Source: Fennellomyces sp. T-0311 (taxonomy: Eukaryota > Mucoromycota > Mucoromycetes > Mucorales > Lichtheimiaceae). Taken from it: a DNA stretch of 64,000 bases. Positions 2,510 to 63,300 of this stretch are shown piece after piece. Within the stretch, counting starts at the first letter, position 1. Every line of letters starts with the position of its first letter. Position numbers and translations under genes: made by a program. The stretch spans positions 558,001 to 622,000 of the forward strand of contig JALLLT010000022.1 of NCBI GenBank assembly GCA_025266875.1, read 5' to 3'. The notes below the pieces were generated by a model. That model did not search any database, was not told the DNA's origin, and saw only the letters and a list, made by a program, of their open reading frames with translations.

Positions 2510-3724
2510 TCAATCTCTTCTATCCGAAATAAAATCATTGATGCTTTCTCGCCATTCCGACGCTGAAATATTGTCATTTAGCGATAACCTTTCCTCTTCA
2601 AGCGTCGCATGCCTAGTTTCCTTGAAAGGCCATTGGTCATTTTCTTGACGAAGAAAGTTATGTAGAATTGCTGTAACTCCAATAATCTGCACCACTTTCT
2701 TTTGATCTTTCTTTATCTTGATCTGGACATGCATTTGTTTCAGGCACTGCCACCTATTCTTGAGGATTCCAAAAGTGTTTTCGATGACAGCTCGAGCAGA
2801 AGCAATGTCTTCGTTGAACATTATGTTCCGTTGGTTTCCTTCAGTAGCAGGTCGTCGGTAAGGAGTGAGCATCCTGGTGCTCAAAGCATATCCGGCATCT
2901 CCTATCAAATACTCGCGCTCCGAGAAATAGGATCCTTCATGTTTCACCAGAGAAGTATCGTTGAATGCGGTCGAATCACTCACAGACCCCGGCCATCCTG
3001 CTTGCATGAACCGAATATTGCGACGATCATCACAGACAACCTGGACATTCAACGAATAGTTGCTTTTCCGATCGTAGTAGGTGCTCCCGTCAATTCCTGG
3101 CTTCTGGGAATAGTTGACGTGTGTACCATCCACAAAGCCAACAACATGAGGGAAGCCATGCTCTTCCTGAATCCGGGCAGCTATTTCTTCACGTTCACGC
3201 GCATCTGGCCAGGAGATATAGATGCTTCCCAGGGATTCGATAGCTCTAAGGACTCGTCCTGTATAGTGGGTAACAGAGCCAGTACTTATACCCCATTCAC
3301 GAGCGATATGTGCGACCGATGCGCCAGTGCCACCATGCGCCAAGGTCTCCAATGTAACTCCAAGTTGAACCCATACAGGGGCTTGCTTTCTCCCACCCTT
3401 CTTTCGGAAAACGGCATGATTCTCAATCATTGCGTGGAGCTTGCGAAATGATTTTTTGTTCATACGAACAATGTTCTTAAAATCCTTCGTATGCCACTGG
3501 AAGAAGAACCGCTTGTTTTCTGTCAACTTTGGAACTACTCTTGACGGGTTGAGATTGCGATGCGCGAGAATTCCTGATTTAATCCTGCACAATTCTCTGA
3601 TGCGTTCCCTTTCCTCCGCCTGACCCTTGGGATCATATGTCATTTGTCTTTCACGCTTCATGAGCAGCTTGATTGCATAGTCAATCTGCTGAAGGGTCCA
3701 TTGACGTTCAGAAATTTTTGTCAT
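2510..3724 (-). CDS. PIF/Harbinger DDE transposase
   Basis: A 404-aa, single-exon enzyme of the HARBI1/DDE_Tnp_4 nuclease family that would cut and rejoin the element ends. The catalytic triad is visible: D199 in GFVDGTHV, D276 in LIGDAGYAL, and E315 in ARAVIENTFGILKNRW. A helix-turn-helix (about 136-162, SVAHIAREWGISTGSVTHY) precedes the catalytic core. Length and motif spacing fit the family. No stops or frameshifts interrupt it, so it may be active. The ATG at 3724 lies about 170 bp inside the right inverted end. Confidence 0.95.
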   Translation of the reverse strand: MTKISERQWTLQQIDYAIKLLMKRERQMTYDPKGQAEERERIRELCRIKSGILAHRNLNPSRVVPKLTENKRFFFQWHTKDFKNIVRMNKKSFRKLHAMIENHAVFRKKGGRKQAPVWVQLGVTLETLAHGGTGASVAHIAREWGISTGSVTHYTGRVLRAIESLGSIYISWPDAREREEIAARIQEEHGFPHVVGFVDGTHVNYSQKPGIDGSTYYDRKSNYSLNVQVVCDDRRNIRFMQAGWPGSVSDSTAFNDTSLVKHEGSYFSEREYLIGDAGYALSTRMLTPYRRPATEGNQRNIMFNEDIASARAVIENTFGILKNRWQCLKQMHVQIKIKKDQKKVVQIIGVTAILHNFLRQENDQWPFKETRHATLEEERLSLNDNISASEWRESINDFISDRRD

Positions 3725-3767
3725 TGTTGGATTTTGTTATAAGAGAAAAAAGATAGGTAATTTGCTA

Positions 3768-3901: not shown

Positions 3902-4989
3902 ATGTCTCAGCAAAGATCAATTTGAAAACGCTCAGGGGCTCCATTGATCAACATTTGAGTTCAACATTCTTAGAAACGTATGCTCTAATATCCACCCAGC
4001 CACCAAGCTCAACCTGCGCAGAATCAAGGTCAAGCTCAGCAAAAGCGATGCTTTTCGTCGAATGACTGGAGTCAATGAGCACATTGCTAAGCAGGTTTCC
4101 AAGCTCTACAAGGAGAACAAAGACCTCCCGGGAACGCGTAAGATAGGTCATACGAAAAAGTAATCAGCAACGCGCTCGCAAAAGCGATGCATTTTATTCT
4201 CGATTGTCATGAGCGTGGATGCCCATTCACTGCTGGTCCTATTCAGCATCACTTTCTTGCGCACGGCAACCCAGACTATTGTGGCTCACTTGCCACGATC
4301 CAAAGCGATCTTATCGCTCAGGACACCGGTATGCAAAGGGACGACAGCAGCACGTCTTTAACGACACGGCGCAGAGTATGGCTTACATGAAAGTGTACCT
4401 GGGTCAATGCGTATCAAATCTTACATATAATGACAAACCACGGAATACGGGGGTTCCTTGAATGAATCATACTGCTATCTCAGTCAACGCGGCTCCATGA
4501 CTTGGTATAAGGTTGCAGGCAAAATAAATCAGAGTGGTCGAAAGCCTATGCTCATTATTCTAGGAGCTATTGCTGTGAGTTACGATCAATGGTGAGAGAG
4601 AAGCAGAAGTTGTCAATAACGTCAATATTTGGCCAGCCTACGGTAAAGCACATCTCGATCTCTCTGAAGGTATCAAGGAATGACCTGCATCCAACAGAGC
4701 GATGTGGACTGACCATCCATCATAGCCAGCTTACATGCGGCAACGTTGATTACTGTGGCCGATTTTTTTTGAGAATCTCTGCTGGAATCTGGTGGATCAT
4801 GACGGTGACTATACCATTCGTATGGAGAGTGCCAAATATCAGATAACCATTAAGCATAAGAAATCACGAATCGCAATGAAGACGGATGATACGTGTTAAC
4901 CGCTGGTGCACCGGTCCCATCAGGAAGCAAAGATATTTGATCTAATGAGAGGCGAGTATTTTTGCGGAGGGCGTTATGTATCAACTTTT
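3902..4989 (+). other. Decayed, unidentified coding remnants
   Basis: Protein-like fragments appear in different plus-strand frames: NEHIAKQVSKLYKENKDLPG (near 4075-4130), HFILDCHERGCPFTAG (near 4190-4240), GNPDYCGSL (near 4265) and GRKPMLIILGAIAVSYDQW (near 4540-4590). Stops and frame changes interrupt them. They do not match exon 1 of the Fanzor at 59.5-59.9 kb in my comparison. I do not recognise the family; this is most likely an old mobile element broken by mutation. Confidence 0.4.
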
Positions 4990-5745
4990 TTGAAGCCTCC
5001 AAAGCCTTTGAAACATCAGCCGACGCCCACACCGGCTCCATCGTCAAGAGATTGAGGAAGCTATCAAAGGAGCGGATAGCACGTAAAAAGCTACACAAAA
5101 AGTACAATACCTAAAAGAAAAAACTTTGGCCGTATCTATGACTGGATCCAATCATCCATCCTAAAAGGGCATTCCATGGACACGATTCTCAACTGATTCT
5201 TCAAACAGATTCAACAATATAAGGATTACGACCGCTTTTCAATTCTCGAGTGTGAAGGGGGATCATCTGCTTGAGGAGGTGCGGTGTTTCTTCCACTCGT
5301 ACACATAGGACGATATAATGGATGACCTGGACAGCGGTTGAGAAACCGATGACCAAGAAACCGACAACCAAGGGACCGACGACAAAGCGAAACGCACCAA
5401 GCGACTAAGAAAAGGGCATATCAAAATGCAAAACGGTTGCTTTTATGGAAACAATGACTTCTTCATTGCGTTCTATGTTACGAGAGGAAGTCGACTATGA
5501 TGGTTTCTTGAACCGATTCGAGACTGAGAAATTACAAGTCGGTCATCGGGTGGCAGACCTTTCGAACGGGATATCCGTGTCGACTGATACAGGGATAATG
5601 ATCTGACTGTGCGATACTGTTGTCGATGGCACGGTTTTCGGCATCTAGGCCCTTGTACCTAGTTTTGACTTCAGAACAGAGGCAAAAGCGAATGTCCCCA
5701 TGTCCGGATTTAGACAAGTTGGAAGATGCCCATCATTTGAACAGA

Positions 5746-6717
5746 AACGATCCCAAGAGACAAGGCCCCCATCCAAAGCGAAAAAAATGTACACACCCAG
5801 AGATGAGAAATTATAAAACAGACAATTCACTAGGGGATGCAGGTGAAGAACGGCTGTGACTATAAATATTACTGCTTGGAAACTGTGGGGTGTACATAAA
5901 ATTCCTCTAAGTCGCATTAAATTTATTCTCTCTTTCGCTCCTATTTCTCATTTTAACTCTTATCAGTAAGTCCAAACATTTGGATTTGTCAAAATAATAA
6001 TTTGTTTCCCTTAGATTGCAGATTTTTCTTTGTGAAAGTCGTGGTCGCGTGTAGGTTCGTCACCTAATCTTAGGCACTGAAGAAAGCTCATTTTTTTAGG
6101 TCTCTTATCGATTTGAATGCCATCAGTGTACGAATTGTAACGTATATAAGACTTTGAATCGTCTAGCAACATCATTTTGGTAATACTTTTGATTTAGGTT
6201 CTTCCTTTTTTTATTGGGATACAGTGGTCGCTTTATATAACGATACGATGGTGCAGCCCAAACTTTATCGTTATATCGAATTATCGTTATACAAAATATC
6301 GCTATATAAAGCGGCCACTGTATCATGGTAAGTACTGACAGAAATATTTTTGACCTCCGTACTATCACAATTACCTACTGTAGGATACGCGTCGTTTCCG
6401 TCCATCGGATGACATTATCAGTCAGAGAGGTGACGCGGCACTTCTTGGTTGACAATGCCAATACAATTCTGTAATGACTGGGATGGTGATTCAGACAGTA
6501 TCAACTGATCAACGTACTACAAGCACAGTTCGATGATCGTTAGTGGCTGGTTCAATGAGGTAGCGCTGCTTCCAAAGCACCTCTCTTTTATCACGTATCC
6601 CCCCCCCTGTGCAGAGTGATCTCATATGACTTTTGTTCCTTCCTAAAAAGGTGAATTATAAAAGGTAATCCCTTATTTGGGTGCCGGGATCTCTGGGTGT
6701 GTACGGTATTTCTAAAA
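5746..6717. other. Unrelated sequence inside the Fanzor pseudogene
   Basis: This stretch has no match to the intact Fanzor and replaces about 2.2 kb of its coding sequence. It contains a MITE at 6222-6320, a poly-C run near 6600, and no convincing gene. Confidence 0.5.
6222..6320. mobile_element. Pogo/Tc1-mariner-like MITE (99 bp)
   Basis: An almost palindromic element: left arm CAGTGGTCGCTTTATATAA, right arm its inverse with two mismatches over about 23 bp, flanked by TA on both sides (6220-6221 and 6321-6322). CAGTGG ends and TA duplications are typical of pogo/Tigger-type elements. It has no coding capacity and would need a transposase elsewhere in the genome. Confidence 0.88.
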
Positions 6718-7260
6718 AAAAGGCGGCAGCATTTGAAACCAAACATACCAAGCGACAAGAATACGACAAGGGGAAGGATGACGCTGGTACGAGGTACAAA
6801 GAGTCAAGGATGAGAGATATACAACTTCGGATCCTGTACCAAATGCTTGCAGCGCCTTGACGCCTTCAGCGGTCAATAACAAAGCTCACTTTCCATGGAG
6901 CCTATCGAGCAGTCAACAGTTGAATCAAAAAGCATGTTAGGATTGCGAACTCAAAACTAAGACAAGGTTTTGACTCCTGCGAGCACGATGCCGTTATTAA
7001 CACCTATGAAAATCGCTCCTCCAAGATATGCCCTGTGTGTCACGCGCCGACAAAACTGTCGAAACACCAAGTAAATGGCAAGCTCAAAGCAGCTAACGGC
7101 GTCATCAATCCCACGAACCCAGGTTATCTTCTGAGCCATGCGAATACCTACAGTCATGACTCGACAGAATCATCAATATCGCTGTGACCATTCTTTGAAA
7201 GCCATATCTAGCAACGATCCATCCAACCTACCCTTTTCCCTTTTCCCACTCCCATGACCC

Positions 7261-7319
7261 AGCACTAGGTACTTTTCACTCCCCCGCGTGACGTAGTTTA
7301 GAACGTCTGATTTTTTACG
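7261..7319 (+). other. Conserved 3' tail of decayed Fanzor copy
   Basis: Starts at the in-frame CAC TAG stop and ends with AGAACGTCTGATTTTTTACG, identical over its last 20 bases to the 3' tail of the intact copy at 55565. Similarity ends abruptly at 7319/7320, marking a probable element edge. Confidence 0.8.
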
Positions 7320-7920: not shown

Positions 7921-9367
7921 ATGAATCACTCATCTCGTTCTGTCGACGGTGAGGCACCGTCTAACAGTATTGGTAACACTTTATCTTCTAACGAAGGTAC
8001 ATCGAAGCCTAAAACCGCTTTATCCACATCTGAAAGTCCTCTTGCGTACAAAGAAACTCAGATATGAATTGTTGAAAACTTAGCAGTAATCTAATACATA
8101 CGTAATAGAACTTCAGATACTACGCCACCGAGTCAACGAGCTAGAATCGATCTTGGCTATGGAACCCCAAGAGCATGAATTTAGAGAATGGCTCGTCAAC
8201 AAGAAGCTGAAATTGGAAGAACGCGGTTCGTTAAAATACCTGAACTTGGCATGCATTGGCGTAAGCTGACGGCACGATTATACTGCATATGTAGATAAGC
8301 AGATATGGGACTTGGAAGTCGAAGTACAATCCTTGAATCAGCAACTTGATCAAGTAAATACCTCGCTCCGTCAGCAAAGCCTCAAAAATCATAGTTTGGA
8401 AACGCGGCTACAGAAAGAACAAGATGAAATGGAGGCGTACAGGGTCGTCAACATGAAGCATCAACAGCAGTTACTTACACTCACCGGGCAACTACGAGCC
8501 CAAGAAAAATCAAACTCATCAAATACCAATATACAAGAACATCTGGGACGAGGAGGCTCCGTAAGCCAAGAATCCGGCGATAATTGTAGCCGTAGTGCAC
8601 AGCAAGCGGCTATGCAGAAAGTTGAAGGTTATACAGACGAGAAAACTGAAGGTTTATTGGAAGCCTCGACAAATGATGTCCTTCTACGAGTGCTTTTAGA
8701 TCAGTTGAGAAGTAACAATATGGTTATTTCTAGTCTGCTGAACGAGAGATCGGCACAACCGTCCACTACAGAATATGAGCAACACTTTATCGACAGATAT
8801 CTGGAACGAAACATATTGTGGAACAATATGCTACTGAGCAACTCGAATATAAGTGGACCAGGAACCCGATCTTTGGACTGTCGTGATCACAAGAGAATTT
8901 CCAAGTACTGTGATACTGGGCTCCGGAGCGATAGTGATGGAGACGATAGTGCAATTGCTGACGAAGATAGCAACGAAATCAAGCGCACCGTTAGCGCAGC
9001 AAACAGGATCCAACAGTCGCTATTTGATGAACTTAAAGAAGCAGCCAAGGTCCCTACTCATGATCGAGCAACACAAACAGAAGTACAAATGGAAGATAAA
9101 GCACCACAAACAGGACCTCAGATCAAGGCAGCACAGGCAGAATACCCGGAACAGGACGAAGTAGCACAAACCAGGTTTCAGAATCGAGCTAGGGCAACTG
9201 ATACACATGTCCGAAAAATTCCATCGAGGTTCCCCAAAAGGACTATTAACATGTTGCCAGGCATCCAATATCATATGGGACAAAGCAATGCTACTGATGA
9301 AATACTAGCAATACCAGTTCTCGTTATCGACACACTTGTTCAAAATCTTTTCAAACGTAGACGTTGA
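7921..9367 (+). CDS. Coiled-coil protein of unknown function
   Basis: Not recognised. Probably three exons: a Ser/Thr-rich start at 7921 (MNHSSRSVDGEAPS), a helical exon from 8109 to about 8225 (ILRHRVNELESILAM, WLVNKKLKLEER), and a long exon from 8295 (DKQIWDLEVEVQSLNQQLD) to the stop at 9365-9367. The join 8225/8295 keeps frame and gives a continuous heptad-like helix. The first join is uncertain. Residues after the coiled coil are acidic, then come short imperfect repeats of the type QTEVQ/QTGPQ/QTRFQ, and a basic C-terminus ending KRRR. A structural or scaffold role is plausible but unproven. Confidence 0.6.
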
Positions 9368-55149: not shown

Positions 55150-55401
55150 ATGATCAAGGCCACTCTCATCCTGCTATTTCTTGTCTTTGCGATAACCACT
55201 ATCGGTGCCGATGTCAAAGCTCTGGATGCCGAATGCTTTGCTATCCGTTATGTAACAAAGCGTGGATGCTGTCAGTCGTACCGAACCAACCCATGCAGTC
55301 CATCCCATCAAATGTGTGGCGCTACAACCCAGGCCGATGTTCAAAAGTATCTCAAGTGTTGCGCTCCCAAAGGCATCAAAAGTGCACTCGACTGCTTTTG
55401 A
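55150..55401 (+). CDS. Small secreted cysteine-rich protein, 83 aa
   Basis: Intronless. A clear signal peptide (MIKATLILLFLVFAITTIGA) precedes a mature part of about 63 residues with eight cysteines (AEC, GCC, NPC, QMC, KCC, LDC), enough for four disulphides. No family recognised; size, secretion signal and Cys content resemble fungal small secreted proteins in general. A function (surface, antimicrobial or host-related) cannot be read from the sequence. It converges on the Fanzor gene, and its 3' end is only 163 bp from the conserved Fanzor tail. Confidence 0.78.
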   Translation: MIKATLILLFLVFAITTIGADVKALDAECFAIRYVTKRGCCQSYRTNPCSPSHQMCGATTQADVQKYLKCCAPKGIKSALDCF

Positions 55402-55564: not shown

Positions 55565-55626
55565 CGTAAAAAATCAGACGTTCTATACTACTTTAAATCC
55601 ACCGTCACGGGGGAGACAAAAAGCAC
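55565..55626 (-). ncRNA. Candidate guide-RNA / right-end region of the Fanzor element
   Basis: The 62 bp after the Fanzor stop match the decayed copy at 7268-7319: GGT(A/G)CTTTT, TCCCCCG, TGACG, then identical AGAACGTCTGATTTTTTACG, after which the copies stop matching. In TnpB and Fanzor systems the guide RNA overlaps the 3' end of the gene and ends at the right boundary of the element. The conserved T6 (complement of 55568-55573) could also serve as a Pol III stop. Guide function is inferred; only the sequence conservation is seen. Confidence 0.5.
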
Positions 55627-58600
55627 CTAGCGCTGGTGTTCCGTCAATCGCTCCATGGAGGCAGCGAGTTGGAATGTTTGGTCGTGGGAGCGGGAGAAGG
55701 GTGGGATGGGTGAATTATTGTGAGATACAGCTTTCGAAAGGCCACTGACAGCGATGTTGAATGCTGCTGCTGCATCACGGTTGAAAGTATTCGCATGGTG
55801 GAGAGGACAGTCCGGATTCGTGCACCTGATGGCGCCGTTAGCTGTCTTGAGCTTTCCATCCACTCGGTACTTCTGCAGTTTTGTCGGTGCATGGCATTCA
55901 GGGCATGTCTTGGACGATCGATATTCGTTGGTGACGATGACGGTATCTTGCTTGCATGACTCGAGAGCCTGTCTCAGTTTTGCGTTCGCGCCTCTAGCAT
56001 GCTTCTTGATGCGACTGTTGACTGCATGATATGCGCCATAGAAAGCCAGTGTTGCTATCGATTGCTGAACGCGCCAAGATGTTGCAAGCTTTCGATGCAG
56101 GATAGAGTGACGGATCTCCCTCGTCCTTGACTCTTTATTCCTCCTGTTGCCGTCGTCCTTTTCCTTGTCGCGTTCGCGTCGATTTGTATGCTTTGTTTCG
56201 AACGTCGCAGCCTTTTTTATTGACGATGTATATTTTTTCGCTTTCGGTGGGCGTGTTGTCTGTTGCGGCGGTTGCTGCTCAGGTGATGGTGGTGAGGTGT
56301 ACCTTCGCACAACGCTCATCACGGCGTCAAAGGTGGTGGTAACCGCGGTTGCCGCGACAACTATCCCTGGATCGATCCCAATGACACCCAGCGGTTTCTG
56401 GCTGTTGAAGCTGTCAATGATCGTCTTCTGGATACGTTTCTATAAACACAGTGATAAGCATACATATAACGCGCCTTTGATCCAAGCGCTCTACCTGTTC
56501 TATTGTTTCTTGAGGCCGATCTGTTTTGTTCGATTTTAATGCTTGCATCCGAAACAGCTCGGCACGCAAATCCGCCAACTTCCTTTGCTTCAATGAGATG
56601 TCCTTTTCAAATTCCCGGACAGTTCTTCGCACCGCCCATAGCTTCGTGTAAACACCACGATCCCAATCCTTCTTCCCCTTGTTCTTTTTCCCGTTCCGGA
56701 ATGTACGACCTAGGTCTGCACGCTCGATCTCGTACTTATTGCACTTCTTGCGTACCGATGTGAGCTCGGTCTGTAGCTCCTTGACCTGTTTCTCCTTCTC
56801 TTCCAGAAGTTGTTGGTTGAGGTTTTGGTCGATGTTAGCCCTTTTCGACCCAGATTCCGCTGCTGAAGGGTGCGGCCTTTTCTGCCTGGCTGCCTTGATC
56901 GCCTTCTTCTTTTTTCGCTTTCGAGCCTTCCTGGCCTTTCCTTTGCCAGCCATTCCCTTACCAGCCTTGTTCTTTGCTGTGGAGAGCGTCACAACAGCCC
57001 TACCCTTTCCTTTGCGAACAGGAAGCACTTCCTCCGCACTGGAATCGGAGGAGCTAGATTCTTCATTTTGATCGGCGGACTGGACGCTGCTTGCTTCTTT
57101 CTTTGCTTGACTGGTATCGTTTGGGTCAGCGATCTTGTGACCACGACCAAGCACCCGGACCTGATACTTGTTAACATAGGTCAAACGGTGCTTGAAGACA
57201 AGGTTCTTGGTTTTGAGAGCTTGTGTTATCTTCGGTAAGCGGAAAAAAGCACCGAAAACGTCATCGCGCCTCTCTGGCAGGCCCGCCTCTCGTTTGCTGG
57301 TGACTTTCCCCTTGGCGTTGGTAGATGGGATCGTGTAAGTACCGGAGAATAATGTGTAAAGCACATCTGCTCCAATATGGATGGAGTGGTCTTTGTAGTC
57401 GACGTCTGGGACGATCGCCCAGCTATTCTGTTGTGGGACCACCAATTTAACGACAGCGTTTGTGATATAAGCCAGAAGGACGCATTCATGCACTGACAGA
57501 ACATCCGCTTCGTCGTCATCGTCGTCTTCCGCGCTATCGTCTTGATCTGGTTCGGGGTGGTAGTATGGTCGAACTGCGTTGGCGATTTCGGCAGCAGCCT
57601 GGCACTGCTTATCTGTTAGGTCGCTCCCCTTGTAGGCTGCATCGCAAATTGCTCTGGCAGACACCTGCTTGGAGGTGGTGGACAGGACTCGTTTGATAAT
57701 GGCTACCAGTGCTCGAACTTGACGGGTGGTAACTTCTTTTTCTTGGGCATCTACGCCAGACTCTTCCACTTCTTCCTCGTCGGCGTCGTTGGTCTTTGTA
57801 CTAATCGGATTGTCCTTGTCAAGATTCTTAGAAAGAGTGTGATCCTGTTTGTGCTTTTCTTTTTTCTCGGCTTCCTCTTTGTTACTAAGAGCTTTTGATG
57901 AACGAGACAGCTTGTCAAGCTTTTAGAATAACTCTGTTAGTGCGAAAGGTAAGCACACAAAAATTCTGTCGATTTACCTTCGCGACCCAGTTGTTTAGCT
58001 TTTCGAATAACATTTCGATCACAGCATCATCTCTTCCTCGAACAATCGAATTCTCAAGCTCTTTCCGGTGGTAATCTGCCTTACTCTTAGCATGTGCTAT
58101 GCTGATATGCCGATCCACGAGATTGCTGGCGTCTGTCTCCTCCTTTTTTCTCTTCTCAGCTGCAATCCGTGCGAGATAACGACGGACGCGATCTGGAGCG
58201 AGCCTCAGCCGAATGAGAGCAGTTGTTAGGACTCGGAGATCCCTGTCGTGGCGCTTCCGCGACCAGAGGTTGTGTGCAGCAGTCTTGAACTCCCGCAGAG
58301 CATTGTTCATGGCACCGTTGAAGGCAAAGTCATCCTGCTTGGTGACAGCACCAGTATCCTCGGTCGCCTTGCGCGATTCATGAAAAACAAATGATTCCAT
58401 CTTTTCGTTCACGCTTGAACCGACGCACCCTAAGCATAAAACATAACACGTTAATTGATGGAAACGGAAAGTGCACACTGCGGTGACGTACCTGACAGTA
58501 TGTTCGAGAAATGTTCAAACTGATACACGCGGGCATCTTCCAACTTGTCCAGATCTGGTGGTATAGGTGACACATGGACAGCCGTTCTCGCCTCTGGTCC

Positions 58601-59933
58601 GAAATCAAAACCAGGTACCAGAGCTTGGATATCGAAAATTGTGTCGTCGACAACAGTGCCGCACAGTCGGGCCATTCTTCCACTGGCGATCATATCAGTC
58701 AAAGCTGATACCCCGTTCGAAAGCTGTGCCATACACCGACCGACGCGCAATTTCTCGTTCTCCAATCGGTTCAAGAACCCGTCGTAGGCGATTTCCTCTC
58801 GTAAAATAGAACGCAATGAAAACGTCATAGTTTCTGTGAAAGCTGCTGTTTCGCGTATTGAAGTGTCTTTGTTCTTGACCACTTGGCTACCTTCGTCGTC
58901 GGTTTCTTGGTCATCACTGTTATTGGCTTCTTGATCGCTGTCCTGATCACCCATGACTTCGTCCCACGTACATGAGTCCAAGAAACCCTGTACTTCCTCA
59001 TGCAGCCGATACCCTTCGCTTTTGAAGTATTGAAATCGGTCGTAATCTTTATAGCTTTTTATCCGGTCAGCGAACCAGTTAGGAGCCACGTCCATGGGAT
59101 GCCGTTTTAGGATGGATGCTTGGATCTCATCATAGATGCGAGGAACATTTTTTCTTTTGTCGTGCTTGTTGTGCAGCTTTTCTAGCATCGTGACAGCTTT
59201 TTGCTTGCTTTCCGCTCCTTTAAATGCCTCTTCAATCTCTTGACGATGGAACCGCCTGACCCCGGCCTCAAACTCGCTGATGATCTGGTCTCGGGTAATA
59301 CCTGTCCGAGATATTGTCACCTCTTCGTTGTCCACGTCATCCTCATCATGGCCTGTAATCGTGGCTACAGTAGACGATGGTGGAGCTGGTGCGGGCGTTG
59401 GCTGACACTTTACCGGCTTCGGAGGCTTCAAAAGAAGTCGATATGAGTATATCATGACTTTAAATGGTTAATCAAAAGCCAACCTTGTACTCGAGCAAGT
59501 CGCAAAGTTGGAACCATTTGGTCTTCTCGCCAAGGTATGAGTCGGTATGCTGCAGCACACTAACAGTTGTCTTGCCGATCGGATTGATCACTTGCGCATG
59601 CTTTCTGGTGGAAAAGTAGAAAACACGCAGATCGTTTTGATGAGCAATGGCTATGAGCAACATCAACCCTTTTGCTTTAGTTGGTGGTGCGGTTCGCAAG
59701 AAAATGGTATGATCAGAGTCGCCGGAAAGCAGCCGTGTCAATGCCGTGGATTGGAGAATATCCATGCCGCTTCTTTTAAGGGCCTTGGTTGTTTTGCGCA
59801 GGTTCTCGGCACCGGGAACAAAGTTATGCAGATCACTGAAGGCGTTCTCGAGCCGGTTGGCTGAGATGGGTGGTGCTTCGATCTGTACCTCTTCCGAATG
59901 ACCAAAGATCTTCTGTACAAGCGTAGGATTCAT
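55627..59933 (-). CDS. Large Fanzor (eukaryotic TnpB-like RNA-guided nuclease), intact
   Basis: Predicted RNA-guided DNA endonuclease of a mobile element. Five exons join in frame: 59933-59484, 59425-58492, 58429-57978, 57919-56495 and 56439-55627, with GT-AG introns of 55-62 bp, giving 1,357 aa with no stops. The RuvC nuclease is in exon 5: D1110 in GVIGIDPGIVVAATA, E1259 in VIVTNEYRSSKTC, D1309 in FNRDAAAAFNIA, with a zinc ribbon C1266-x2-C1269 and C1293-x4-C1298 between the last two. The Glu sits just before the zinc ribbon, the rearranged position known in Fanzors. Exon 4 has a conserved wedge-like part (VLYTLFSGTY, LVFKHRLTYVNKYQVRV), a Lys/Arg tract (KARKARKRKKKKAIKAARQK; nuclear signal or RNA contact) and a coiled coil. 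Exons 1-3 have no recognised domain; the family is usually much shorter (about 500-800 aa). Confidence 0.92.
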
Positions 59934-59962
59934 AGTTGGAAAGAATGTGGTACAGCATGAAA

Positions 59963-59976
59963 CGCGAAACGCGAAA
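59963..59976. promoter_or_regulatory. Tandem CGCGAAA (SCB/E2F-like) motifs at Fanzor start
   Basis: Two adjacent CGCGAAA heptamers 30-43 bp upstream of the Fanzor ATG; read on the gene's strand they are TTTCGCG repeats. This matches the CRCGAAA box of fungal G1/S factors and E2F half-sites. Regulation is inferred. Confidence 0.45.
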
Positions 59977-60332
59977 AAAGAGACTCGATGGAAGCACGCA
60001 ACTGGGCGTGTATTTTATTTGGTACTTCCTTATTAAGTTAGGCTAACGTTGACATCCAAGCATTGTTACTTTCATTTGTAGTATCTATCATAATGGTCAA
60101 CCCTATTGGCCATCGCTATTGTCTCAGTATGCGAACGAGGCACACGCTTCATGTATGGTATGCACAGATCAACTGTTTCTGCACACGAAATGCTATCGGC
60201 AACCAATGATATGCATAGACGGCGCAACCCACCAGCTTCCGTTTAAGTAGAATATCTCGCAGTAAAAAGCGTGACAGACACCCAGCCAGCCGTATCGACC
60301 AATCCCTAAAGGCTGTTTCAAACGCCGTTAGA

Positions 60333-60376
60333 ACGCGTAAAAAAGGGTACGGAAACCAGTTTTCTTCCCGACGCGT
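60333..60376. promoter_or_regulatory. Two MCB-like ACGCGT motifs upstream of PMS1
   Basis: ACGCGT at 60333-60338 and 60371-60376, 65 and 27 bp from the ATG. Paired MCB boxes are typical of fungal S-phase genes. Confidence 0.5.
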
Positions 60377-60397
60377 CAAGCTGCGCAATAACCTGTC

Positions 60398-63300
60398 ATG
60401 AGTATTATATCAGCCATTGATAAGCAGACGGTGCATCGCATCTGCTCGGGTCAAGTTGTGCTTGATCTGGCCATGGCTGTCAAAGAATTAGTAGAAAACA
60501 GTGTTGATGCCGGTGCTACTGCGATTGGTAACACTCGACAGTACGATCCCAAGTCAGGCGGCTAATCGAGCGAATTATGAAATAGAAATCAAGTTTAAGG
60601 ACAGTGGCGTCGATGGATTTGAAGTCATTGATAATGGATCCGGAATCGCACCTGAAAACTATGAAACGCTGAGTGAGTGGTGTTTGCAAGGCACATATTA
60701 GGACTAGTTTCTGATACTGGCTGCGCACAGCCCTGAAGCATTATACCTCAAAGATCGAGCGGTTTGAGGATTTAGAGAGTGTTACGACGTTTGGCTTTCG
60801 AGGAGAAGCGTTGAGCTCGTTATGCTCATTATGTGAGCTTGTCGTCACCACGGCAACGAAGGAACAAGCACCGAGAGGCGTCAGGCTCGTTTACGATACC
60901 AATGGTCGCCTCGTTTCCCAAACGCCCGTCGCCCGCTCAGTACGGTTCTACTCATCCGTTTTTTATCTTCTTTACTGATAGATCAAACAGGTTGGAACGA
61001 CAGTGCATTTGGCACAGCTTTTCCACACGTTGCCAGTGCGTCAGCAAGAGTTCAAGCGCAATGCCAAACGGGAATATGGCAAGGCACTTTCCATTATTCA
61101 GCAATACGGTATCATTAGCAACAACATTAAGATCAGTGCAACCAATCAAGTGGGACGAGTGTAATGCATGCAAGCGCGAGTGTGTGTGTATCGGGTACTG
61201 ATGGATGCATGTCACTACTCTGTAGGCCTCAGAAAGCAATCGCTACCAATGGGAACAAAGCTGTGCGAGACAATATCCTGAATCTCTTTGGAGCTAAAAT
61301 ACTCACGCAAATCATGCCCTTCGAGGTCGCTTTGGATCCTCTGTTGGAACAAGTGCCCAACGATCATAATGAGGAGAGCAAGTAAGGTATTGGATTTTGG
61401 AGTTACTTTGCGTACTTAGATATCTCGCGTAGGGGGGCAACAGGAGTGATTCATGGATTTATATCAAAGCCAGAGTTTAAATGTGGACGAGGTAGTGGTG
61501 ATCGGCAGTACTTTTACATCAACGGCCGACCATGCACATTACCCAAGGTTCGTCGATGGTTATGGCGCGCATCATGACACAGCACAAACTGATCTAAATA
61601 TCTAGCTGGCCAAAGCGTTCAACGAACTTTACAAAAGTTTTGTCGCCAACGAATATCCTTTTGTTGTCGCTGACATTCGACTGGCTCCCAGTATGTCATA
61701 TGGATAGATTGATGAACTTTGCTAAATGAAGCATTATAGACAAGTATGATGTCAATGTCACCCCCGATAAGCGTACTATCCTTCTTCATGATGAACAGGC
61801 GATGATCACACACATAGTTGTAGGTACTCGTGGGATGGACATATTCTATTTGTGCTGAATAGAAGTTATGCAGGAGGACTTGAGGGAGCAGTTGGAACCA
61901 TCTCGATCCACGTTCGTTGCGACACCTTTTTCAATTCCTCAGTCCGACCAAGTTGATACTTCAATGTCGCCACCTGAACCTGTGCCATCTTCAAACGGGT
62001 CCGAATCTATCCACCCAACACGAACTTTTCGACCGATACCCAGAGATACATCGCCACCCATTCCTAGGACACATCTTGGAGTATCCATGCCACGTACTAC
62101 CCCGCCACCTATGCCACGATCCACTTCATCGCACGTACCACGATCCACTCCACCACCCATCCCACGACCCACAACACGATCTGAACGCCCATCGTTCTCC
62201 TCATTTGTATATTCTCCACGGCCAGAGTCTATCGGTGTGCGAAAGCGACAGGATATGAGTATTCAAGACTTCATGTCTAAGCGCAGAAAGTCATCAGCAG
62301 AAGATGCGTCGCCGAGAGCAACCGAAGTTACGGGTGATCCTATGGAGATGGTGGATGAGTTAGCAGAGGATGATGAACAGCCTAGAAGTGTCGATGGCCA
62401 CCAAACAGAACGTATCGAAAGAATGGAAGAAGTTGATGGAGTGGAAGGAGATATCACCGTCGATGAGAACGGAGTAACTGTCGTGAGAGTGATGCAAAAA
62501 GAGATAATGGGCATACCTGGCCCTTGGTTCACGCGAGATATAGAGGGAACAATCGACGTTCAACTACAGAGACTCAAAGTATCACTTTATGCAAAAGAAG
62601 ACGCATCAATGCCACAGATCAACACGTATACTCTGGAGGAAGCCAACTTGAGCAATGTTGACGATGACGAAACGGCAGTGGCGGCACTCCGGCGTGTTAT
62701 CAAAAAGACGGATTTTGCAAATATGAAAGTGATTGGACAGTTCAATCATGGATTCATTATTACTATGCTCGATGACCATGATTTGTTTATCGTGGATCAA
62801 CACGCGTCAGATGAAAAGTATAACTTTGAAACTCTGCAGCTGACATCAAAAGTCCAAGGGCAGCGACTGATCGAGTATGTGTGGGTCAGGAGACAAGAAC
62901 ACAGCTGATCTTTCATCGATAGACCACAAACTGTTGAGCTGACTGCTGCGGAAGAGCTGGTTGTCATGGAAAACCAAGAGATCATTCGTGCAAACGGCTT
63001 TGATGTGGAAATCGACGAAAGTAAGGAGCCCACTCAACGAATTCGCGTGATATCGCAGCCAATGTCCAATGACATCATGTTTGATAAAAAAGGTATGAGG
63101 GCGCTGGATCAGCCACGACAGTAGCTCACGCTTCTACAGACTTTGGTGAGCTTGTGTATGCCCTATCCGAAAGTCCCGGTCAAATGGTTCGCTGCTCTCG
63201 CGCTCGAAGAATCTTTGCATCCAAGGCGTGTCGTAAGTCTGTCATGATCGGGGATCCTCTCAACACTCGTAAAATGTGCCAAGTAAGGAAGTTTAAACCG

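What the first reader, a model, noticed from the sequence alone, without database searches (positions are those of the whole stretch)
55627..59933. Intact, five-exon, 1,357-aa Fanzor RNA-guided nuclease
Five exons with short GT-AG introns keep one open frame and end with a full RuvC set: GIDPG, NEYRSSKTC, zinc ribbon and FNRDAAAAFNI. The family (TnpB/Fanzor OMEGA nucleases) is established; this copy, its length and its apparent integrity are read from the sequence. An undamaged copy beside a decayed one suggests recent activity.
Basis: partly seen in the sequence, partly recalled or inferred. Interest (0 to 1): 0.92.

Follow-up and report, generated by a model that had tools for sequence, protein, structure and literature searches.

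The report
Giant Fanzor gene riding a Helentron
This is an intact, unusually long gene for a probable RNA-guided DNA cutter (Fanzor), carried by a fungal mobile element whose starting end matches that of rolling-circle transposons elsewhere in the same genome, which probably supply the machinery that moves it.

Summary
Confirmed: a five-exon minus-strand gene (59933→55627) with four GT-AG introns encodes one 1,357-aa protein. A predicted Circinella umbellata protein (1,415 aa) matches it at 39% over 97% of its length, across every splice junction. The C-terminus is Fanzor1: the best three PDB matches are the three solved Fanzor1s (E 1.7e-6, 1.4e-3, 0.039), and E1259 and D1309 align with catalytic E541 and D606 of SpuFz1. 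The structure model failed (pLDDT 41). The protein is about twice the 600-700 aa quoted for most Fanzor1s; its first ~1,087 residues match no Pfam family above cut-off.

Beyond the finding: the gene fills a ~4.76-kb element with at least 15 near-complete copies in the genome (very probably Fennellomyces sp. T-0311), 3 with the frame intact; dN/dS 0.26-0.38. Its 5' end is that of Helentron-type rolling-circle transposons: nine loci with a related Rep/helicase carry the same 5' motif. All 15 scored insertions follow a C-preceded T-run. I read it as a Helentron-derived non-autonomous element carrying a giant Fanzor1. Nuclease activity, guide RNA and TAM are inferred. Recent mobility rests on the genome-wide copies.

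The parts
55627..59933 (-). Fanzor1 gene, five exons, 1,357 aa
   Evidence: Conceptual splicing gives one open frame; full-length homologue P0007
59484..59933 (-). exon 1, residues 1-150
59426..59483 (-). intron 1, GT-AG, 58 nt
58492..59425 (-). exon 2
58430..58491 (-). intron 2, GT-AG, 62 nt
57978..58429 (-). exon 3
57920..57977 (-). intron 3, GT-AG, 58 nt
56495..57919 (-). exon 4
56440..56494 (-). intron 4, GT-AG, 55 nt
   Evidence: same junction in deposited gene model P0005 of another copy
55627..56439 (-). exon 5, residues 1088-1357 plus stop: RuvC motifs D1110, E1259, D1309 and C4 zinc ribbon
   Evidence: PF07282 24.2 bits, below its 26.3 cut-off; SpuFz1 E=1.7e-6, PpFz1 1.4e-3, GtFz1 0.039
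55574..60336 (-). mobile element (Helentron-derived, non-autonomous) containing the gene; flanked by T-runs
   Evidence: Boundaries shared by genome copies
60262..60336 (-). element 5' end, shared with RepHel-encoding Helentrons and with a second Fanzor element family
60329..60336 (-). 5' terminal inverted repeat GCGTTCTA (partner of the 3' repeat)
55577..55587 (-). 3' inverted repeat TATAGAACGTC, only a few bases from the 3' end
60339..60344 (-). target T-run on the 5' side (CCC-TTTTTT); proposed to be the TAM
   Evidence: C immediately before the T-run in 15 of 15 scored insertions
55568..55690 (-). proposed omega-RNA region at the 3' end, overlapping the last codons; the guide would be the flank below 55568
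   Evidence: Inference from Fanzor/TnpB logic; the fold of 55571-55690 is no more stable than shuffles (z -0.09); noncoding tail diversity 0.027 against 0.056 at third codon positions and 0.032 in introns
4979..7315 (+). decayed relative of the element with a closely similar 3' terminus (TAGAACGTCTGATTTTT)

Best explanation
The gene is an intact Fanzor1 of an unusually long lineage, carried as the only sizeable gene of a non-autonomous element derived from a Helentron (Helitron2-type rolling-circle transposon). Shown by sequence: the protein frame, its Fanzor1 C-terminus, the multicopy element, and a 5' terminus common to loci of the same genome that encode Rep/helicase proteins, at least one of them (C120) with a fused endonuclease. 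Inferred: those Helentrons move the element in trans, inserting it 3' of a C-preceded T-run. Inferred further by analogy to characterised Fanzor/TnpB enzymes: the element's 3' end is transcribed into an omega-RNA whose guide is the 3' flanking host sequence; the C/T-run on the other side acts as the TAM; and the nuclease cuts sites or alleles that lack the element, so that repair copies the element in or keeps it.
For: One 1,357-aa frame over five exons; homologue over 97% of the length; the best three PDB matches are Fanzor1s, with two catalytic residues aligned; 3 of 15 near-complete copies intact; dN/dS 0.26-0.38 in ten pairs of five copies, 0.29-0.36 among the three intact ones. Helentron: the 5' end matches C120 (76% over 79 of 84 bases), which carries Helitron_like_N, PIF1 and Exo_endo_phos domains; the 5' motif occurs at 36 places, 0 in the reversed control, and lies 1.7-2.3 kb upstream of the Rep domain, same strand, at 9 of 11 loci with a related RepHel; T-run target; of 12 copies with both junctions in hand, the 8 with exact 5' ends share 3-6 bases between the two junctions (the T-run, at most one more), the 4 with altered 5' ends share 7-14, the pattern published for Chlamydomonas Fanzor1 elements in Helitron2.
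Against: No structural confirmation: the exon-5 model has pLDDT 41. PF07282 scores below its curated cut-off for this protein. With the full-length two-sequence profile the best PDB hit is SpuFz1 at only E 0.0063. NCBIfam's guided_TnpB does not match this protein. The 3' 120 nt show no unusual RNA stability. The element lacks the 3' palindrome and the 5' terminal hairpin seen in the C120 Helentron, and only the 5' end, not the 3' end, is shared with RepHel elements. The Circinella full-length homologue has K where E1259 stands. 12 of 15 near-complete copies are broken. No expression data.
Confidence: 0.72

Rival explanations
1. The Fanzor gene is a dead passenger: the element spreads by Helentron machinery alone and the protein no longer cuts.
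For: 12 of 15 near-complete copies are broken; a deletion derivative (element positions 662-956) lies at four loci (C113b, C114, C124, C100b; two of them share their 5' flank); a Circinella full-length homologue lacks the catalytic Glu.
Against: dN/dS 0.26-0.38 with three intact copies; the Glu is kept in this copy, in the second Fanzor family of this genome (P0003) and in P0001, P0002 and P0004.
Confidence: 0.2
2. The element is moved by a cut-and-paste transposase (hAT- or MULE-like) through its short inverted repeats.
For: Imperfect terminal inverted repeats of about 10 bp; in this copy 11 identical bases including the T-run stand at both junctions. Three published Mucorales Fanzor1 elements were assigned to MuDR with 9-bp TSDs.
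Against: 8 of 12 copies with both junctions have no duplication beyond the T-run and at most one base; the T-run target is constant; the 5' end is that of RepHel elements.
Confidence: 0.05
3. The gene is a domesticated host gene.
For: Frame intact, purifying selection.
Against: Many copies at different sites with transposon ends, most of the near-complete ones broken.
Confidence: 0.02

Closest known systems
Chlamydomonas CRe-1/2/3 Fanzor1 elements (non-autonomous Helitron2; Bao & Jurka 2013, PMC3627910: outline, sections 6, 8, 9 and passages read)
   Same: Fanzor1 as passenger; 5' end shared with RepHel elements; insertion after a T-run; no TSD at exact 5' ends, variable TSDs at altered ones; multi-exon gene
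   Different: Fungal (Mucorales) host; the one partner examined (C120) carries an endonuclease, so is a Helentron; C precedes the T-run in all scored insertions; the 3' inverted repeat lies at the very 3' end without a following palindrome
SpuFz1, GtFz1, PpFz1 (solved Fanzor1s; PMC10432273 section 5 and passages, PMC11423790 passages read)
   Same: C4 zinc ribbon, catalytic Glu before it, RD after it; sequence profile match
   Different: 1,357 aa against 600-700 aa quoted for most Fanzor1s; over 1,000 residues before the RuvC motifs without a recognised domain. PpFz1 is also from a Mucorales fungus, but its quoted extra is a ~100-aa insertion inside RuvC
Helentrons/HINEs (Thomas et al. 2014, PMC4067079: section 6 and passages read)
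   Same: T-rich target, subterminal inverted repeats, partner with Rep, helicase and AP-type endonuclease
   Different: Carries a Fanzor gene; lacks the 3' palindrome, and its 3' repeat lies a few bases from the end instead of the 38-60 bp given for mite HINEs

Membership tests
Fanzor1 | C-terminal motif D-X(125,275)-[TS][TS]-XX-C4 zinc finger-X(5,50)-RD (PMC3627910) | tested here: met
   D1110, S1262-S1263, C1266/C1269/C1293/C1298, R1308-D1309; gaps of 151 and 9 residues
Fanzor1 | Relocated RuvC glutamate just before the zinc finger | tested here: met
   E1259, with six residues between it and C1266; aligned with SpuFz1 E541, and D1309 with D606
Fanzor1 | Homology to characterised Fanzor1 proteins | tested here: met
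   SpuFz1 1.7e-6, PpFz1 1.4e-3, GtFz1 0.039 (weak); next hit E 0.72
Fanzor1 | Pfam PF07282 over its cut-off | tested here: inconclusive
   24.2 bits on exon 5 and 22.0 on the full protein against a cut-off of 26.3; the six-frame genome search scores this place 26.6
Fanzor1 | RuvC fold | tested here: inconclusive
   AlphaFold2 model of exon 5, pLDDT 40.9; no fold search could be run
Fanzor1 | omega-RNA from the 3' end | tested here: inconclusive
   Fold z -0.09; no Rfam match; no RNA data
Fanzor1 | RNA-guided DNA cleavage with a TAM | not testable with these tools
   needs biochemistry
Fanzor1 | Encoded inside a transposable element | tested here: met
Helentron/Helitron2 (non-autonomous) | Termini shared with a RepHel-encoding element | tested here: inconclusive
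   5' end met; the 3' end was found only in Fanzor elements (22 of 22 places are also)
Helentron/Helitron2 (non-autonomous) | T-rich target, no TSD at exact ends | tested here: met
Helentron/Helitron2 (non-autonomous) | Asymmetric terminal inverted repeats | tested here: met
   GCGTTCTA near the 5' end, TAGAACGTC near the 3' end
Helentron/Helitron2 (non-autonomous) | 5' terminal hairpin involving the 5' repeat | tested here: not met
   8-bp hairpin in the C120 Helentron; the Fanzor copies' typical 5' end folds otherwise
Helentron/Helitron2 (non-autonomous) | 3' palindrome downstream of the 3' repeat | tested here: not met
   Present in the C120 Helentron, absent here

The most novel reading that the evidence does not exclude
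The Helentron target (C-preceded T-run) doubles as the Fanzor TAM, and the copies with TSD-like 5' junctions (this one, C139, C79, C102) are footprints of RNA-guided homing: the TAM-side end of a cut empty allele, with 2-9 bases of protospacer, was joined by microhomology to the element's 5' end while the guide side was copied exactly. The long N-terminal part would be an adaptation to work with the rolling-circle machinery.
Probability: 0.1. Interest if true: 0.85.

Novelty: new variant of a known kind. Interest (0 to 1): 0.52.

Why it matters
What Fanzors do for the transposons that carry them is open. Here an intact Fanzor1, its element and candidate helper Helentrons with open frames sit in one genome, with a recurrent target motif that predicts the TAM and a flanking sequence that predicts the guide, so the question can be tested directly. 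The lineage also extends Fanzor1 to about double its usual size, with conserved sequence of unknown function.

Tried and rejected
Cut-and-paste families (hAT, MULE) were considered from the short inverted repeats and the 11-base match between this copy's junctions; rejected because 8 of 12 copies have no duplication beyond the T-run and at most one base and the 5' end is that of RepHel elements. Canonical Helitron1 ends (TC...CTRR in window orientation) were considered; rejected because the base after the CTAA is not T and the C120 partner has an endonuclease and inverted repeats.

The homing-footprint idea was tested by asking whether altered 5' junctions are special to Fanzor copies. Exact TTTTTAGGCGTTCTA stands at 10 of 14 Fanzor-A places holding the 5' motif and at 2 of 10 RepHel places (C90, whose Rep domain lies 7.5 kb away, is counted among the ten). 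With the looser TTTNGGCG the same two RepHel places match. The other RepHel loci may simply have a family-specific end, which I did not read, so the contrast decides nothing; it gives no support.

omega-RNA folding gave nothing, Rfam nothing, NCBIfam nothing useful for this protein. Exon-wise Pfam scans gave a few matches below cut-off in the N-terminal part (best E 0.0088, DUF4611), not seen in the full-length scan. Two full-length protein searches found only the Circinella protein, each with candidates capped at 8,000. The far end of the flank shared by copies C114 and C124 was not reached. The automatic TSD scan missed this copy's repeat, so junctions were recounted. The second structure job and three tries at a fold search were never accepted.

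Rows dropped before counts: in the 5'-flank count (15 insertions) C114 and C124 count once; C150b, C113b and C100a were left out (5' end missing) and C128 (T-run interrupted by G). In the junction count (12 copies) C103 and C100b were left out (ends in separate loci), C13, C104 and C128 (no 3' end), C150b, C113b and C100a (no 5' end). 5' noncoding diversity values are not used, because two rows were non-homologous there. dN/dS was computed for five of the 15 copies, those without indels in the coding part.
Full report
WHAT IS THERE. The window is a stretch (C98:558001-622000) of a 45.6-Mb genome in 182 contigs. Two contig lengths (840,188 and 1,156,422) equal those given for Fennellomyces sp. 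T-0311 proteins found by homology, so the source is very probably that Mucorales fungus. On the minus strand, five exons from the ATG at 59933 to the stop at 55627 join through four GT-AG introns of 55-62 nt into one frame of 1,357 codons. Six combinations were tried, varying introns 1 and 3: two broke the frame after 152 codons, the others gave 1,351-1,357 codons.

IS THE GENE MODEL REAL. A Circinella umbellata protein of 1,415 aa (P0007) aligns at 39% identity over 97% of the length, continuous across all four junctions. It is a predicted protein, so this is support rather than proof of splicing. One search lists 58 matching places in the genome (a lower bound). I examined 15 near-complete copies, this one included: 11 align along practically all of the element, 4 carry a large internal or terminal change; the 14 others are 93-98% identical to it in their main match. 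All keep GT-AG at every intron that they retain; 3 of the 15 (window, C139, C106) have the full 1,357-codon frame, 12 do not. Pairwise dN/dS among five copies without coding indels (two of them with a stop) is 0.26-0.38 (ten pairs), and 0.29-0.36 among the three intact ones (Nei-Gojobori counts in my own script): the lineage that made these copies was under purifying selection.

WHAT PROTEIN IT IS. Only the last exon is recognisable: PF07282 at 24.2 bits, just below its cut-off. A profile from seven relatives (A1) searched against the PDB gives SpuFz1 (E 1.7e-6), Parasitella parasitica Fanzor1 (1.4e-3) and, weakly, Guillardia theta Fanzor1 (0.039), then a non-Fanzor chain at 0.72. A second profile (A2) gives the same order at 3.9e-4, 0.0093 and 0.026; the full-length two-sequence profile gives SpuFz1 at 0.0063 and a ribosomal chain at 0.55. 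In the SpuFz1 alignment E1259 falls on E541 and D1309 on D606 (numbers worked out by taking off 394 residues for the tag), which the papers name as catalytic (PMC10432273 and PMC11423790, passages). D1110 in GIDPG is matched by motif and spacing, not by that alignment. The published Fanzor/TnpB motif is met throughout. Residues 1-1,087 match no Pfam family in the full-length scan at E 1; exon by exon, a few matches below cut-off appear (best E 0.0088). PMC11423790 says that most Fanzor1s have 600-700 aa, so this lineage is about twice as long. The Circinella full-length protein has K at the position of E1259; P0001 (Circinella), P0002, P0003 (second Fanzor family of this genome) and P0004 keep E.

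WHAT CARRIES IT. The element runs from about 60336 to 55574 (minus strand). Typical ends in Fanzor orientation: CCCTTTTT-AGGCGTTCTAACGG ... TATAGAACGTCTGA-TTTTT-flank. No other frame of 150 aa or more lies inside. The 5' end is shared with a second Fanzor family (for example C172) and with C120, where downstream on the same strand lie frames with Helitron_like_N (84.8 bits), PIF1 helicase (102 bits) and Exo_endo_phos (40.4 bits): a Helentron. Its ends look complete: 8-bp 5' hairpin, a matching 3' inverted repeat, a 3' palindrome, and a terminal CTAATTTTT; the 3' end is inferred from these marks, as I read a single copy. The 5' motif CGTTCTAN{0,2}ACGGNGTTTGAAA occurs at 36 places with none for the reversed control. 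Of 11 loci with a related RepHel (45% identity or more), 9 have it 1.7-2.3 kb upstream of the Rep domain on the same strand; C90 has it 7.5 kb away; C130 not at all. Only C120 was scanned for the endonuclease. C179 and C39 lie in frames of 1,796 aa without a stop, so candidate intact helpers exist. The 3' end of the Fanzor element was found only in places that also match the Fanzor query.

HOW IT INSERTS. In 15 of 15 scored insertions the T-run on the 5' side is preceded by C; positions -2 and -3 are C in 11 of 15 each. In the window, C precedes T-runs of five or more in 179 of 351 cases, so 15 of 15 is not background. Of 12 copies with both junctions in one locus, the 8 with exact 5' ends share 3-6 bases between the junctions (the T-run and at most one more). 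The other 4 (window 11, C139 13, C79 14, C102 7) have altered 5' junctions that repeat the 3' flank, T-run included, some with microhomology to the element. This is the pattern that Bao and Jurka describe for Chlamydomonas Fanzor1 elements in Helitron2 (PMC3627910, sections 8 and 9). Copies C114 and C124 share at least 2.88 kb of 5' flank but differ three bases after the 3' T-run. That would fit one-ended rolling-circle transfer with capture of the 5' flank, but a segmental duplication with that breakpoint is not excluded, and the far end was not reached. Four copies share the same 295-bp internal deletion (positions 662-956), as non-autonomous derivatives would; two of the four are C114 and C124.

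HOW IT MOST LIKELY WORKS. Shown: intact frame, selection, element, shared 5' end, target motif. Inferred: Helentron Rep/helicase in trans mobilises it. Inferred by analogy to characterised Fanzors (SpuFz1 guide of 14-15 nt reading out of the element's 3' end, TAM on the other side; PMC10432273 passages): the 3' end makes an omega-RNA, the C/T-run is the TAM, and the nuclease cuts element-free sites to favour copying or retention. The 3' tail's fold is not more stable than shuffles (z -0.09), and its low diversity (0.027 against 0.056 at third codon positions and 0.032 in introns, 18 rows) is only mild support.

MEMBERSHIP AND NOVELTY. As a protein it is Fanzor1 by the sequence criteria tested, except the Pfam cut-off; fold, RNA and activity are undecided or untested. 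As an element it works like a non-autonomous Helentron, but two structural marks (5' terminal hairpin, 3' palindrome) are not met and the 3' end is not shared, so I call it Helentron-derived rather than a standard HINE. Fanzor1 in Helitron2 and Fanzor1 in Mucorales are both in print (PMC3627910, PMC11423790). In the open-licence library, which lacks most subscription papers, 'Fanzor' with 'Helentron' gives 0 papers, with 'Mucoromycota' 0, with 'Helitron' 4, and none with Fennellomyces or Circinella. What looks new is the double-length lineage and its pairing with an endonuclease-bearing Helentron in a fungus.

Noticed in passing
60339-60398: The element sits about 54 bp upstream of the ATG of a MutL-type mismatch-repair gene (start 60398; MutL_C match in 61859-62905), so it may lie in that gene's promoter or 5' leader; ACGCG motifs lie on both sides of the element.
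   Followed up: partly
C124:311753-319100 and C114:354401-361743: Two copies share at least 2.88 kb of 5' flank but have different 3' flanks starting three bases after the 3' T-run; one-ended transfer or segmental duplication.
   Followed up: partly
element positions 662-956 (window 59387-59681): A deletion that removes intron 1 and 246 coding bases (a multiple of three) is shared by C113b, C114, C124 and, by its breakpoints, C100b.
   Followed up: partly
L060 (C172:443600-448400): Second Fanzor element family with the same 5' end, a different 3' end and a shortened gene; C-terminus 40% identical to this protein.
   Followed up: partly
P0007 (Circinella umbellata): Full-length giant homologue with K in place of the catalytic Glu, yet a cluster of six member sequences.
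   Followed up: no
2513-3736: Minus-strand frame with a DDE_Tnp_4 transposase domain (127.8 bits), about 1.2 kb from the decayed Fanzor relative.
   Followed up: no
55150-55401: Small frame for a probable secreted cysteine-rich peptide next to the element's 3' flank.
   Followed up: no
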